Part shown: in pieces, positions 613-4,982 of the stretch | Layout: every line of letters starts with the position of its first letter | How positions within the stretch are numbered: the stretch's first letter is position 1 | NCBI GenBank assembly: GCA_046759145.1 | Contig: JBHIBR010000162.1 | Coordinates: forward strand, 1 to 5,052 | Direction of reading: 5' to 3' | DNA length: 5,052 nucleotides | Origin: JBHIBR01 sp046759145 [NCBI: Nitrospinota bacterium] | Lineage (GTDB): Bacteria; UBA8248 | Notes under the pieces: model-generated | Database searches by the model: none | What the model was told of the DNA's origin: nothing | What the model saw: only the letters and a program-made list of their open reading frames with translations | Translations under genes and position numbers: made by a program

Positions 613-1691
613 GCCCGGTACTGGAACTGCGAGAAGTGAGCAAACATTTCCAAAGGGGCCATCCGGTGGTGTGCGGCCTCTCCTTCTCGATCCCGCCCGG
701 GGAGATCGTCTGCTTTCTGGGACCCAGCGGCGCGGGGAAAACGACCACCCTTCGCCTCATCGCTGGCTTCGAGGTACCCGAGGAGGGAACCATCCAGGTC
801 GGCGCTCGGAGGGTGGCCGGGCCCGGCACCTTCATCCCCCCCGAGGGGCGGGGCGTGGGGATGGTCTTCCAGGACTACGCCCTTTTCCCCCACCTCTCGG
901 TTGCCGAGAACGTCGCTTTTGGGCTCTGGCGTCTCGACCCGGCGGAGCGGTCCCGGTGCGTCGAGGAGATGCTGGAGATTGTGGGGCTCACCCCCTATGC
1001 CAACCGCTACCCCCATGAGCTCTCCGGCGGCCAGCAGCAGCGCGTGGCGCTGGCCCGAGCCCTGGCGCCTCGCCCCTCCCTCGTTCTGCTGGATGAACCC
1101 TTCAGCAACCTGGATGCGCACCTCCGCGCCCAGATGCTCCAGGAGGCGAACTCCATCCTTCGGTCGCAGCAAATTACGGCTATCCTGGTCATCCACGACC
1201 AGGAAGATGCTCTGATGGTGGCCGACCGAGTGGGAATCCTCCACGAGGGCAGGCTGGAGCAGCTCGCCCCGCCCGAGGAGGTCTACCGAAGGCCAGCCAG
1301 CCGGTTTGTGGCCGGCTTCTTGGGGAAGGCGGACTTCTTGCCGGGCCGGGTCATGCACGAGGGCGTGGCCACCGAGATCGGCCTCTTCCCCAACGCCGAC
1401 GGCCTTCGCCTCGGGGCTCGGGTGGAGGTGATGGTGCGGCCCGACGAGGTCGAGCTCATCCCCGACAACCGGAGCAGCGCCCTTGTGGTGTCGCGGCATT
1501 TCCGGGGGTCGGGGGACCTCCTCTGCGTTCAGCTCCCCTCCGGGGCGCGGGTGCACAGCCTTCAGCCCCCGAGCCTGAAGATGGAGCCCGGACACCGCGT
1601 CCAGGTCGTGCCTGTGCCGACGCGCCCGGTCGTCTTCCCAGCCGCTGGGGAAGGACCTCTCGGAACTCCTCACCCTCACTCATCCCGGTAG
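609..1691 (+). CDS. ABC transporter ATP-binding protein, FbpC/PotA-like, with TOBE-type C-terminus
   Basis: This 360-residue ATPase powers the importer whose permease precedes it. All nucleotide-binding motifs are intact: Walker [10 protein letters not shown] at 38-46 (K44), Q-loop Gln88 in [10 protein letters not shown], signature LSGGQQQR at 138-145, Walker B LVLLDEP at 158-164 (catalytic E163), D-loop SNLD at 166-169 and switch H196. After the [10 protein letters not shown] linker (222-231), residues of about 240-340 form a regulatory/TOBE-like domain with the family-typical MVRPDEVEL at 275-283. About 360 residues is normal for the CysA/PotA/FbpC/UgpC group. The start is GTG at 609, based on the GGAGG site and the four-base overlap with the permease stop. 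The last 16 bases overlap the convergent enolase gene. The final residues (about 345-360) are a low-complexity Pro/Gly/His tail. FbpC-like (iron) is the best guess from the permease, but thiamine, polyamine or phosphonate import is possible. Confidence 0.93.
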
Positions 1692-2764
1692 GGGCGCACC
1701 CCCTCCTCGTCGAAATCGAGCCCCAGGCCCGGCCTGTCGGGGATGCGGGTGACGCCCCGTTCGGGGAGGGGGGGCTCTTTGAACAGCTTCCCGGCCAGGC
1801 CCGCCGGCTCCAGGTGGTACTCCACCCTCCAGCCGTTTGCCACCCCCGCTGCGAGGTGCATGTTGAGGTGGGGCCAGCCGTGGGTGGCGATGGGGAGGTT
1901 GTAGGCCTGGGCCAGGTGGGCCACCTTGAGCCCCTCGGTGTATCCCCCGACGAAGACCACGTCGGGCTGGGCGATGTCCACCGCCCCGCTCGCGATGAGG
2001 TCCCGGTGCCGCCAGCGCATCCCCTCCTGCTGGCCGGCGGCGATGGGGATGGAGGTGGAGGCCCGCAGGGCCACCAGGTCCTTGATGTCGTTGCCGTGGA
2101 CGGGCTCCTCGAACCACTTCACCCCGTAGGGCTCGCACAGCCGGGCGAGCTCGCGCGCCTGCAGGAAGTGGAAGAGGTGGTTGGCGTCCATCATGATCTC
2201 CACCCCCTCCCCCACCGCCTCCCGCACCGCCCGCACCCGGGCGGCGTCCTCGGGGACGTTCTGGGAGTCGTCCACGCACACCTTCATCTTGAGCTTGTCC
2301 CAGCCCGCGCGGACGAGCTCCGCCGCCAGCTCGGCGAGGGTCTCCCGGTCGTACTCGAGCATCCCGAAGGTGCAGTAGGTGGTGACCTCGGCGGAGTACC
2401 CGCCCAGGAGCCGGTACACGGGCTGGCCCAGGGTCTTCCCCTTGAGGTCCCACAGCGCGATGTCGGCGGCGCTCAGGGCGGCCGTCCACACCCCGGTCAT
2501 GCGCCTCTGGTTGTACTTCCAGAAAAGCTCCTCCCAGATGCGCTCGGTGGCGAGGGGGTCCCTCCCGACGAGGTAGGGGCCGATCTCCCGCCGGATGTTC
2601 TCCCGGCAAGCGAAGCGGTCCACCCTGTGGGTGCATCCCACCCCCGTGAGCCCCTCCTCGGTGCGGATGCGGCACACCACGGCGTCCGACATGACGGGTT
2701 CGGCGAAGCGGGGGAGCTCCACGGGGACGAGGTAGGAATCCGCCTCCACACTGGCGATCTTCAC
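1676..2764 (-). CDS. Mandelate racemase/muconate lactonizing enzyme-type enolase-superfamily protein
   Basis: This 362-residue cytosolic enzyme belongs to the mandelate racemase subgroup, which abstracts the alpha-proton of a carboxylate to dehydrate or epimerise sugar acids. An N-terminal capping domain (about 1-125) precedes the TIM barrel. Catalytic positions fall at the spacing known from mandelate racemase: the KxK lysines K159/K161, metal ligands D193 (DAN) and E219 (FEEP), the Asp-His dyad D268 (QPD) and H295 (ATHGW), and E315 matching the electrophilic Glu. The third metal ligand position, normally Glu, is Gln245 (GQQEG, codon 2032-2030), with a Glu two residues later (E247). The GTG start at 2764 is set by AGGAGG nine bases upstream, which overlaps the stop codon of the permease gene. 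The frame is open well upstream, but that part is the permease gene read out of frame. The PH.NMHLAAG region after H295 recalls galactarate/talarate dehydratases, but the substrate cannot be assigned. The 3' end overlaps the ATPase gene tail to tail. Confidence 0.93.
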   Translation of the reverse strand: MKIASVEADSYLVPVELPRFAEPVMSDAVVCRIRTEEGLTGVGCTHRVDRFACRENIRREIGPYLVGRDPLATERIWEELFWKYNQRRMTGVWTAALSAADIALWDLKGKTLGQPVYRLLGGYSAEVTTYCTFGMLEYDRETLAELAAELVRAGWDKLKMKVCVDDSQNVPEDAARVRAVREAVGEGVEIMMDANHLFHFLQARELARLCEPYGVKWFEEPVHGNDIKDLVALRASTSIPIAAGQQEGMRWRHRDLIASGAVDIAQPDVVFVGGYTEGLKVAHLAQAYNLPIATHGWPHLNMHLAAGVANGWRVEYHLEPAGLAGKLFKEPPLPERGVTRIPDRPGLGLDFDEEGVRPYRDE

Positions 2765-2773
2765 AGAGAGACT

Positions 2774-2779
2774 CCTCCT
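2774..2779 (-). promoter_or_regulatory. Strong ribosome binding site of the enolase gene overlapping the upstream stop
   Basis: On the minus strand the sequence reads TGAGGAGGAG followed by seven bases and GTG. The A of the permease TGA stop is the first base of AGGAGG, so a ribosome terminating on the permease sits on the enolase initiation site. This fixes the GTG at 2764 as start and implies co-translation of the two genes. Confidence 0.8.
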
Positions 2780-3603
2780 CAGAGAGCCCGCAAGCCCTTC
2801 CACAGCAACAGCAGGGCCATGAGCGCGACGAGGGCGGCCAGGATGCGGGCGATGGTCACACCCCCCAGGCTGTGGGAGAGGCGGGCGCCCAGCGGAGCCC
2901 CCACCATGACGCCCGCCGCGAGCAGCACGGCCACCAGGCCCAGGGAGCGCAGGTGGCCGGCAGAGAGGTGCACCAGGACGGCGGTCGAGATCATGAGCAT
3001 CTGGACGAAGATGGCGGTGGCCGTCCCCACGTGGACCGGAAAGCCGAAGAAGCGGATGAAGAGGGGCGTGATGATGGGCCCCCCTCCGATCCCGAAGAAG
3101 GCGGGGAAGAATCCCACCCCCGCCATCACGGCCGCCCCCATCCTCTCCCGCACGGCGTATGTATACACCCTTCCCCGCGCGTCCCGCAGCCGCCGCATCC
3201 CCCGGGGTGCGGAAGCCCCTGCGGCAACCACAGGTTCTTTGAGCTTCGGGGGCCGGAAGGCGAGGGCCGCCATCCCGAGCAGGAGCAGACCGAAAGCCAG
3301 GTCGAAGAAGCCCCTTCCCACCTGGCTGTTGACCACCACGCCCAGCACCGCACCCGGCAATGCCGCGCAGCCGAACAGCAGCCCGCTCCTCAGGTCGACC
3401 CGCCGCAGGCGCGCGTAAGCCCCCGTGCTGACAATCAAGTTGATGCACACCACCGTCAGGGAGGTCGCCGTCACCAGGGAAGCCGCCTCCCGGGGCATGA
3501 GGAAGAGGAGCACAGGCGTGAGGATGAAGCCCCCCCCCGCTCCTACCAGCGCGCCGATCACTCCCACCGCGAGGCCGAGCAAGAGGAACCCGAGCACCCA
3601 CAT
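2779..3603 (-). CDS. TauE/SafE family (DUF81) anion permease
   Basis: This 274-residue integral membrane protein is of the TauE/SafE type, a family linked to export of sulfite, sulfoacetate and other small organic anions. It shows the family's internal duplication: GAGGGFILTP at 21-30 and GIGGGPIITP at 171-180, exactly 150 residues apart, each opening one half of the transporter. Hydrophobic segments lie at about 3-24, 37-61, 73-91, 99-116, 157-170, 183-205, 209-229 and 250-268, consistent with eight helices. The halves are joined by a basic hydrophilic loop (about 117-155). I chose the ATG at 3603 because the protein then begins directly with the first helix. A longer frame to an ATG at 3711 would add a polar Arg/Gly-rich stretch and would start upstream of the predicted transcription start. 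It is first in an operon with the enolase, suggesting it moves that enzyme's substrate or a by-product. The direction and identity of the anion are unknown. Confidence 0.88.
   Translation of the reverse strand: MWVLGFLLLGLAVGVIGALVGAGGGFILTPVLLFLMPREAASLVTATSLTVVCINLIVSTGAYARLRRVDLRSGLLFGCAALPGAVLGVVVNSQVGRGFFDLAFGLLLLGMAALAFRPPKLKEPVVAAGASAPRGMRRLRDARGRVYTYAVRERMGAAVMAGVGFFPAFFGIGGGPIITPLFIRFFGFPVHVGTATAIFVQMLMISTAVLVHLSAGHLRSLGLVAVLLAAGVMVGAPLGARLSHSLGGVTIARILAALVALMALLLLWKGLRAL
3530..3538. repeat. Nine-base C/G homopolymer inside the permease gene
   Basis: Nine C on the plus strand, nine G on the coding strand, encoding the glycines of the GAGGG motif near the permease N-terminus (residues 22-25). 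The reading frame is intact here. A one-base length change would frameshift the protein after about 25 residues. Confidence 0.85.
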
Positions 3604-3639
3604 TCCCCTGGCCCTCTCCCTCCGTTCCGGAACTGCTCC

Positions 3640-3660
3640 GGCGGGACCGAGCGTCCCACC
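3640..3660 (-). promoter_or_regulatory. Hairpin in the 5' leader of the permease-enolase transcript
   Basis: Read on the minus strand, GGTGGGAC (3660-3653) pairs with GTCCCGCC (3647-3640) over eight positions, with one G-U pair and a five-base loop. It lies about 36 bases before the permease ATG. No T-run follows it, so it is not an intrinsic terminator. A role in leader stability or translation control is possible but not shown. In so GC-rich a sequence a chance hairpin cannot be excluded. Confidence 0.4.
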
Positions 3661-3713
3661 GCCCTTGCCGTCCGCCGGCCGGAAGCCTGCCCAGCCCACC
3701 AGCCGTCGCATCC

Positions 3714-4001: not shown

Positions 4002-4982
4002 ATGATGCGCGTGGACGTCCAGACCCACGTCCTGCCCCTGCCCTATCTGGAGGCGCTGGAAGGACGCAAGGGTTTCCCCTCCGCCTTCCGGGAGGGGGGG
4101 AAGTGGCGGGTGCGCGCCGGCCCCCACATGACCCTCCCCGTGTCGGAAGGGCTCCTGGACCCGGAGGAGAAGCTCCGGGCGATGGACGCGGCCGGGGTGG
4201 ATGTGTCCCTGCTGAGCCTCAACATCCCCGGGCCCGAGGGTGTGGAGGGGGAGGAGGGCGAGCGCCTGGCGCGGCTCGCCAACGAGGCCCTCGCCGAGGT
4301 CTGCTCCCGCCACCCGGACCGCTTCTGGGGCCTCGCGAGCCTCGCCTGCCAGCAGCCAGACCGCTCGCTCCGGGAGCTCGACCGCTGCGTGCGGAACCTC
4401 GACTTTCGGGGCCTTCAGCTCTTCAGCAACATCGCCGGCCACCCCCTCGACCACCCCTCCTTCGAGCGCTTCTACAAGCGGCTGTGCGAGCTGGACATCC
4501 CTCTCGTGCTGCATCCCGCCTACCCGGTGATGGCGGACGCCATGGCGGATCACCAGCTCATCCCCACCGTGGGCTTCATGTTCGACACCACCCTGGCCGC
4601 CCTTCGCCTCATCCAGAGTGGGGTGCTGGAGCGCTACCCCTCGCTCCGGGTGGTGCTCCCCCACGGGGGCAGCACCCTTCCCTACCTCCTGGGCCGCATC
4701 GACTACCTCTCGGAGCGCCACCCCGGCGCGCGGGCCCACATCGGCGAGGCGCCGAGCGCCTACTTCGCCCGTTTCTACGTGGATTCGGTCACCTCCTCCC
4801 GGGCGGCGCTCGAGTACTGCCTGCAACAGGTGGGGCCCGGGCGCCTGCTCTTCGCCAGCGACCACCCCTGGGTGCCCCTCAGCCTGGCGGTGGAGCTGGT
4901 CGAGGGGCTGCCTCTTGGGGAGGGCGAGCGGAGGGCCGTCTTCGGCGAGACGGCGGCGAAGCTCTTCCGAGGGATGCGGTAG
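4002..4982 (+). CDS. ACMSD-like metal-dependent amidohydrolase/decarboxylase (amidohydrolase 2 family)
   Basis: This 326-residue cytosolic TIM-barrel enzyme resembles aminocarboxymuconate-semialdehyde decarboxylase and related hydrolases/decarboxylases. Visible metal-site elements are an N-terminal VDVQTHVLP (4-12) in place of the usual HxH, so Q7 and H9; H171 in LVLHPAYP; H221 in VVLPHGGSTLPYLLGR (217-232), the family's proton-shuttling His; and D287 in LLFASDHPW. The segment FMFDTTLAALRLI at about 192-204 and GVLERYP at 207-213 are also typical. Length is normal for the family. I chose ATG 4002 because the conserved first strand follows directly; a second ATG at 4005 is equally possible, and upstream in-frame codons are atypical. 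The nearest Shine-Dalgarno-like run (AGGGGG, 3983-3988) is 13 bases away, so translation may depend on the small gene upstream. The Gln at the first ligand position may alter the metal or the reaction. Substrate unknown. Confidence 0.92.
   Translation: MMRVDVQTHVLPLPYLEALEGRKGFPSAFREGGKWRVRAGPHMTLPVSEGLLDPEEKLRAMDAAGVDVSLLSLNIPGPEGVEGEEGERLARLANEALAEVCSRHPDRFWGLASLACQQPDRSLRELDRCVRNLDFRGLQLFSNIAGHPLDHPSFERFYKRLCELDIPLVLHPAYPVMADAMADHQLIPTVGFMFDTTLAALRLIQSGVLERYPSLRVVLPHGGSTLPYLLGRIDYLSERHPGARAHIGEAPSAYFARFYVDSVTSSRAALEYCLQQVGPGRLLFASDHPWVPLSLAVELVEGLPLGEGERRAVFGETAAKLFRGMR

What the first reader, a model, noticed from the sequence alone, without database searches (positions are those of the whole stretch)
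2024..2032. Enolase-superfamily enzyme with Gln in place of the third metal-binding Glu
Spacing of K161, D193, E219, D268, H295 and E315 matches mandelate racemase (K166, D195, E221, D270, H297, E317), with a constant offset of two from D193 onward. The position equivalent to Glu247 is Gln245 (codon CAG at 2032-2030), one base change from GAG. A Glu two residues on (E247) might substitute. Seen: the substitution. Known: the third ligand is nearly always Glu in this superfamily. Inferred: altered metal binding or a subfamily with a distinct reaction.
Basis: partly seen in the sequence, partly recalled or inferred. Interest (0 to 1): 0.6.

Follow-up and report, generated by a model that had tools for sequence, protein, structure and literature searches.

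The report
Enolase-family enzymes with altered metal site
A bacterial enzyme of a well-studied family carries a glutamine where its relatives use a glutamate to hold the catalytic metal, and this change marks a whole uncharacterised branch, most of whose sampled members have also lost the usual proton-moving residues.

Summary
In detail: the minus-strand gene 2764-1676 (GTG start, 362 aa) is a mandelate-racemase-subgroup enolase-superfamily protein with K161, D193, E219, D268, H295 and E315 in place and Gln (CAG, 2032-2030) at the third metal-ligand position. It is not a read error or lone mutation: Gln stands in 32 of 39 sampled sequences of one clade and 0 of 84 others (82 Glu, 2 His). The clade also fixes Asn301 and His317 (39 of 39; 3 and 5 of 84 outside). 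It has two parts. The window's branch (7 sequences) keeps the canonical bases. The other 32 have lost K161, D268 and H295 together, and there the ligand column has drifted further (Ser, Pro, Ala, once Glu). A distant protein (PDB 3MSY/3NO1/4H83) has Gln in the same column and falls outside the clade; 3NO1 is titled a magnesium complex, so Gln here has a precedent. Glu247 as substitute ligand is weakly supported: 37 of 82 Glu245 proteins have it too. Most likely an active Mg-dependent acid dehydratase or epimerase whose metal site is one charge less negative. Substrate unknown; the branching order inside the clade is not settled.

The parts
1676..2764 (-). Mandelate-racemase-subgroup enolase-superfamily gene (GTG start, 362 aa, stop included)
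   Evidence: AlphaFold2 model mean pLDDT 91.1; structure matches Z 47.0 to 5xd9 and 44.4 to mandelate racemase 1mns
2030..2032 (-). codon CAG, Gln245, at the third metal-ligand position (Glu247 of mandelate racemase)
   Evidence: aligned to Glu of 5xd7, 5olc and to Gln of 3msy
   Evidence: from the frame; conservation
2186..2188 (-). codon of Asp193, first metal ligand
   Evidence: frame; Asp in 39 of 39 clade rows
2108..2110 (-). codon of Glu219, second metal ligand
   Evidence: frame; Glu in 38 of 39 clade rows, Asp in L144
2282..2284 (-). codon of Lys161, S-face base of the K-x-K motif
   Evidence: frame; kept in 7 of 39 clade rows
1961..1963 (-). codon of Asp268, partner in the His-Asp dyad
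   Evidence: frame; Asp in 7 of 39 clade rows, Asn in 32
1880..1882 (-). codon of His295, R-face base/acid
   Evidence: frame; 7 of 39 clade rows
1820..1822 (-). codon of Glu315 (Glu317 of mandelate racemase)
   Evidence: frame; 39 of 39 clade rows
1814..1816 (-). codon of His317, clade-marking residue
   Evidence: 39 of 39 clade rows, 5 of 84 outside
2779..3711 (-). TauE/SafE-family transporter gene, directly upstream and co-oriented (14 bases between its stop and the GTG), probable operon partner
   Evidence: ORF; PF01925 136 bits
3933..4982 (+). Amidohydrolase_2 gene, divergent; neighbour, link unproven
   Evidence: ORF; PF04909 136.2 bits for 4002-4979

Best explanation
The gene encodes a mandelate-racemase-subgroup enzyme from an uncharacterised clade. 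Supported by counts and trees: on the ancestral branch of this clade the third metal-ligand Glu became Gln, and Asn301 and His317 became fixed; the window's branch kept Lys161, the Asp268-His295 dyad, Glu315 and the two other ligands (Asp193, Glu219). Inferred: it is an active Mg2+-dependent enzyme. Asp193, Glu219 and the amide oxygen of Gln245 hold the metal, which binds the substrate carboxylate; Lys161 or His295 removes the alpha proton; the enediolate is stabilised by the metal and Glu315; and His295 acts as acid to expel a beta-hydroxyl (dehydratase) or a base re-adds the proton (epimerase). The amide ligand makes the metal site one charge less negative than the D/E/E site, which would suit a substrate with an extra negative group such as a diacid. 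Inferred from neighbours in related loci: the substrate is an imported organic acid, processed together with a zinc alcohol dehydrogenase.
For: All canonical acid/base residues intact. Gln in 32 of 39 clade rows against 0 of 84 outside, two codons used. Clade support 100/100 (18 thinned rows) and 100/100 (30 thinned rows, trait columns removed). Parsimony on the 44-row tree: bases lost once, ligand column changed 5 times. Model pLDDT 91.1 with the enolase-superfamily fold. A precedent for the substitution in a metal-bound entry: the 3msy chain has Gln in this column with K, D, H and E kept, 3no1 has the same stretch and is titled 'in complex with magnesium'. Zn-ADH as neighbouring gene and TRAP parts nearby in 5 of 5 sister loci with enough flank (L109, L110, L111, L113, L119).
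Against: No activity, metal content or substrate is known. I had no coordinates, so it is not shown that Gln245 touches a metal here or in 3no1. In the sister branch the same column is Ser, Pro or Ala in 6 of 39 clade rows (in the Pro, Ala and Glu rows the local alignment is uncertain), so the ligand may be dispensable in this lineage. One of three trees puts the window branch inside the base-less branch. The window itself has no ADH or TRAP gene in its 5 kb. Several diacid dehydratases keep Glu (recalled), so the charge argument is not a rule.
Confidence: 0.6

Rival explanations
1. The clade is losing enolase-type chemistry altogether: Glu to Gln was the first step, and the window protein is a weak or altered-metal enzyme on the way to the sister branch, which works without the two classical bases, perhaps through Lys159, Glu315 and His317.
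For: The base-less branch lacks K161, D268 and H295 in 32 of 39 clade rows; ligand column Q, S, P, A or E; H317 and N301 in 39 of 39; K159 in 39 of 39. Its gene neighbours point to aromatic or multi-carboxylate acids: arylmalonate decarboxylase in L011, BenE in L086, FAD ring-hydroxylase-like plus SDR genes in 3 of 3 loci L112, L114, L115.
Against: The window branch conserves all canonical bases in 7 of 7 sequences, which argues for selection on ordinary enolase-type chemistry there.
Confidence: 0.2
2. The window branch sits inside the base-less branch, so that Lys161, Asp268 and His295 were regained, or were lost several times in parallel.
For: 59-row tree without trait columns: window branch grouped with five base-less rows, 95/87.
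Against: AU test does not reject one base-less clade (p 0.339). With denser sampling (44 rows) the base-less rows form one side of a branch, though only at 72/73. All 32 base-less rows carry the same one extra residue between columns 289 and 304 (17 residues against 16 in the 7 others).
Confidence: 0.12
3. Glu247, two residues on, replaces Glu245 as ligand, so the site is still D/E/E.
For: E247 in 30 of 32 Gln rows.
Against: E247 also occurs with Glu245 in 37 of 82 outside rows and is absent from 2 of 32 Gln rows, so it is not tied to the substitution.
Confidence: 0.08

Closest known systems
Marine actinobacterium enolase-superfamily protein, PDB 3MSY / 3NO1 / 4H83 (function unknown to me)
   Same: Gln in the same column with Lys161, Asp193, Glu219, Asp268, His295 and Glu315 equivalents kept (3msy chain; same stretch in 3no1 and 4h83); 3NO1 titled a magnesium complex
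   Different: 28-30% identity; falls outside the clade in the 59-row tree, so its Gln looks like a separate origin (long branch, placement unsure)
Mandelate racemase (P. putida; 1MNS)
   Different: 24% identity; Gln instead of Glu247; Asn301 and His317
L-talarate/galactarate dehydratase family (NF047820)
   Same: Best NCBIfam match, 188 bits over residues 28-354
   Different: Far below the curated cut-off of 500 bits
Anhydrogalactonate cycloisomerases (5XD7-5XD9, 5OLC)
   Same: Top of the structure list (5xd9 Z 47.0, 5xd7 46.9; rows within 1 are tied) and of the profile search (5olc 246 bits)
   Different: 27-33% identity; Glu at the third ligand
Glucarate dehydratase (third ligand Asn; recalled)
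   Same: A neutral amide as third ligand
   Different: Only 27.9 bits to its model TIGR03247 against a cut-off of 828.7
MR/MLE genes beside arylmalonate decarboxylase genes (PMC4996985; abstract, section 13 and passages seen)
   Same: L011, a base-less relative, lies near a gene over the arylmalonate decarboxylase cut-off and TTT genes
   Different: The window has no such gene; whether the paper's MR/MLE proteins belong to this clade was not tested

Membership tests
Enolase superfamily | N-terminal capping domain plus C-terminal barrel (MR_MLE_N, MR_MLE_C) | tested here: met
   58.1 and 204.7 bits, both over cut-off; fold matches
Enolase superfamily | Metal-dependent abstraction of a proton alpha to a carboxylate | not testable with these tools
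   needs an assay
Mandelate racemase subgroup | K-x-K base and His-Asp dyad | tested here: met
   K159/K161, D268, H295
Mandelate racemase subgroup | Asp, Glu, Glu metal ligands (definition recalled) | tested here: not met
   D193, E219, Gln245; Glu in 82 of 84 sampled non-clade sequences
Mandelate racemase family proper | Close sequence kinship with mandelate racemase | tested here: not met
   24% identity to 1mns; no mandelate racemase model among the 17 NCBIfam matches
L-talarate/galactarate dehydratase NF047820 | Score over the curated cut-off (500 bits) | tested here: not met
   188.1 bits
3MSY/3NO1 family | One clade with the window protein | tested here: inconclusive
   the 18-row clade (100/99) excludes 3msy, but 3msy has a long branch and no AU test was run on it
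Gln245 clade described here | Q245, N301, H317 and common ancestry | tested here: met
AMDase-linked MR/MLE genes | Arylmalonate decarboxylase gene nearby | tested here: not met
   no such gene among the four window proteins scanned with Pfam; found near relative L011

The most novel reading that the evidence does not exclude
The clade records a stepwise rebuilding of the enolase-superfamily active site: first the third metal ligand became a neutral Gln with the bases still intact (the window branch is the surviving form of that stage), then both proton-transfer bases were lost at once and the ligand drifted to Ser, Pro or Ala, while Lys159, Asp193, Glu315, His317 and Asn301 stayed fixed. The sister branch would then run a chemistry not known in this superfamily, for example on aryl-malonate or other multi-carboxylate acids.
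Probability: 0.3. Interest if true: 0.75.

Novelty: new variant of a known kind. Interest (0 to 1): 0.5.

Why it matters
Curated annotation in the enolase superfamily checks conserved functional residues, the metal ligands and acid/base residues among them (PMC5467563, passages seen). A conserved clade in which the ligand changes first and the bases go later would let the order of active-site change be tested directly. It also warns that labels such as "mandelate racemase" or "galactonate dehydratase" may be wrong for these genes, for instance in Chloroflexota, where paralogue expansions carry such labels in SAR202 genomes (PMC6946804 and PMC10444878, passages seen; whether my Chloroflexota rows are SAR202 was not tested). 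And it offers a handle on the natural substrate of arylmalonate decarboxylases, called unidentified in PMC4996985 (passage seen).

Tried and rejected
Read error or lone mutation: rejected by 32 of 39 clade rows with Gln and two codons.

Glu247 as substitute ligand: weakened, because it is common with Glu245 as well (37 of 82).

Regain of the bases inside the base-less branch: suggested by one tree, not upheld by the AU test nor by the denser tree. Support for the alternative is itself only 72/73.

First AlphaFold job (6 sequences) gave pLDDT under 50 for residues 245-311 and was not used. For the second, L005 and L007, three viral-contig loci and four (two of these nearly identical) were added, making 15 sequences and pLDDT 91.1. 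The model's coordinates are not among the files of the Python box, so the metal site was not measured.

A solved clade member: the profile search listed 60 of 190 PDB matches, best 5olc at 246 bits. The lowest clade rows, L090 and L091, score only 243-244 bits and three outside rows reach 311-321, so score alone does not exclude membership. Single searches with L090, L141 and L087 found best matches of 94, 145 and 130 bits (60 matches listed in each), none close. Only 3msy was put in a tree.

AMDase link: AMDase-family genes ring over the cut-off in 16 of 18 genomes of the phylum, in 0 of 14 control genomes, and on other contigs than the clade genes. Of two plasmid AMDase loci read (L011, L130), only L011 has a mandelate-racemase-type gene.

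Literature: listings (0 papers; 3; 5; 3; 10 of 17 listed; 31), and passages of PMC9795676, PMC4215206, PMC5467563 and PMC8142540, show no account of Gln as third ligand. One search was too broad to count (10 of 23,696 listed). Most subscription journals are not in the library.

NCBIfam gives no family for the TauE-like protein or the amidohydrolase. L116 5566-7473, L117 7094-8824 and an ORF beside the gene in L002 (1706-2803 minus) match no Pfam family; L002, 3.2 kb long, told nothing on context.

Rows dropped: counts leave out identical sequences, those under 250 aa (among them the partial L007, which has Gln and no bases) and those scoring worse than the E-value limit against the clade profile; near-identical rows are kept in the 39 and 84 and thinned and the trees. 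Clade rows were taken by profile score over 335 bits (36 rows) plus L087, L090, L091, placed by tree. The profile was built from 9 Gln rows and one of six search peptides held the Gln, so sampling leans to Gln; Ser, Pro, Ala and Glu members were still found.

Full report
What is there. The minus-strand gene from 2764 to 1676 starts with GTG and encodes 362 residues. Pfam finds both enolase-superfamily domains. A ColabFold model built on 15 sequences has mean pLDDT 91.1, and the top of its PDB list is made of enolase-superfamily proteins: Z 47.0 to 5xd9 and 44.4 to mandelate racemase 1mns.

Is the Gln real and more than chance? Relatives were gathered from genome contigs (7 loci), plasmid records (regions), four genomes behind those loci, genomes of two phyla (201 and 18) and two classes (393 and 29), and viral contigs. 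Among 123 distinct sequences of at least 250 residues, 39 belong to the window's clade and 84 do not. Position 245 is Gln in 32 of 39, with Ser 3, Pro 2, Ala 1 and Glu 1; outside it is Glu in 82 and His in 2 of 84. Thinned to under 90% identity this is Gln in 24 of 30 against 0 of 59. The Gln codon is CAG in 29 and CAA in 3. In the Pro, Ala and Glu rows the loop differs in length or sequence, so the letter given there is less sure. The clade is supported 100/100 in a 65-row tree (18 rows) and 100/100 in a 44-row tree from which the trait columns were removed (30 rows).

What else marks the clade. Asn301 and His317 are found in 39 of 39 and in only 3 and 5 of 84 outside; Glu315 in 39 of 39; Lys159 and Asp193 in 39 of 39, Glu219 in 38 of 39.

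Two parts. Seven sequences (window, L001, L002, L003, L004, L005, L064) keep Lys161, Asp268 and His295. The other 32 have Val, Thr, Leu, Ile, Gln or Asn at 161, Asn at 268 and Gly or Ala at 295, and all 32 have one residue more between columns 289 and 304 (17 against 16), as in NGGGWP against THGWP. Three trees disagree in detail. With trait columns in, the window branch is sister to the rest, whose own support is 81/91. With trait columns out and 59 rows, it groups with five base-less rows at 95/87, but an AU test does not reject one base-less clade (p 0.339). With more sampling, 44 rows and trait columns out, the base-less rows form one side of a branch at 72/73, the bases are lost once and column 245 changes 5 times. 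The simplest reading is Glu to Gln on the stem, then loss of the bases in one branch, then further drift of the ligand; the branching order is not settled.

Precedent. The 3msy chain has Gln in this column with K, D, H and E kept, and 3no1 and 4h83 have the same stretch. The title of 3no1 says "in complex with magnesium". 3msy falls outside the clade (long branch), so Gln seems to have arisen at least twice, and a Gln-bearing site can occur in an entry solved with Mg2+. I could not see whether that Gln touches the metal. No PDB chain was shown to lie in the clade: the best profile score is 246 bits (5olc, with Glu), against 343-638 bits for 36 clade rows, 329 for L087 and 243-244 for the divergent L090 and L091; searches with L090, L141 and L087 themselves found no close chain.

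Function. NCBIfam gives 17 family matches, all far below their curated cut-offs (best 188 of 500 bits). In five loci of the window branch with enough flank (L109, L110, L111, L113, L119), a zinc alcohol dehydrogenase is a neighbouring gene in 5 of 5 (with a gap of about 500 bases in L113) and TRAP transporter parts lie nearby in 5 of 5 (T-component found in 4, DctP in 4). The window differs: a TauE/SafE transporter gene lies directly upstream, an amidohydrolase_2 gene is divergent, and an ABC transporter is convergent. Base-less relatives sit by other genes: tripartite tricarboxylate transporter genes in L008, L009, L010, L011, L090, L091 (6 of 7 base-less plasmid loci with Gln; in the seventh, L086, of which five ORFs were scanned, the benzoate transporter BenE lies just upstream); a gene over the arylmalonate decarboxylase cut-off in L011; SDR and FAD ring-hydroxylase-like genes in 3 of 3 of L112, L114, L115. 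L087, the one with Glu, lies among sugar-acid genes. All this points to imported organic acids, aromatic or multi-carboxylate in part of the base-less branch. It does not name a substrate.

Mechanism. For the window protein I infer ordinary enolase-superfamily chemistry: Mg2+ on Asp193, Glu219 and the Gln245 amide, proton removal by Lys161 or His295, stabilisation by the metal and Glu315, and dehydration or epimerisation. The amide removes one negative charge at the metal, making it a stronger Lewis acid and more tolerant of an extra anionic group on the substrate. What is shown are the residues and their conservation; metal, chemistry and substrate are inferred. Glu247 as a stand-in is unlikely, since it accompanies Glu245 in 37 of 82 outside sequences.

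Novelty. The fold and the superfamily are known. The combination of Gln ligand, Asn301 and His317 in an uncharacterised clade, with a base-less sister branch, is a new variant of a known kind. The literature searches listed under Tried and rejected found no account of it in the held library.

Noticed in passing
   Followed up: no
   Followed up: partly
   Followed up: no
L112 4905-8109, L114 1738-5372, L115 3374-6953: Conserved gene trio in three related genomes: short-chain dehydrogenase, base-less Gln245 enzyme, FAD ring-hydroxylase-like monooxygenase.
   Followed up: partly
L011 1217-1933 minus and 4995-7282 plus: A gene over the arylmalonate decarboxylase cut-off (271.9 bits, cut-off 225), TTT transporter genes, an alpha-hydroxy acid oxidase and an aldehyde dehydrogenase around a base-less Gln245 enzyme in Ponticoccus alexandrii: a candidate pathway for the unknown natural substrate of AMDase.
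   Followed up: partly
L005 5001-6071: The first part, up to about window residue 97, does not align with the close relatives while the rest does (63% identity overall), as if the gene were chimeric or misassembled.
   Followed up: no
window 1676-1691: The enzyme gene and the convergent ABC ATPase frame (to 1691) overlap at their 3' ends by 16 bases.
   Followed up: no
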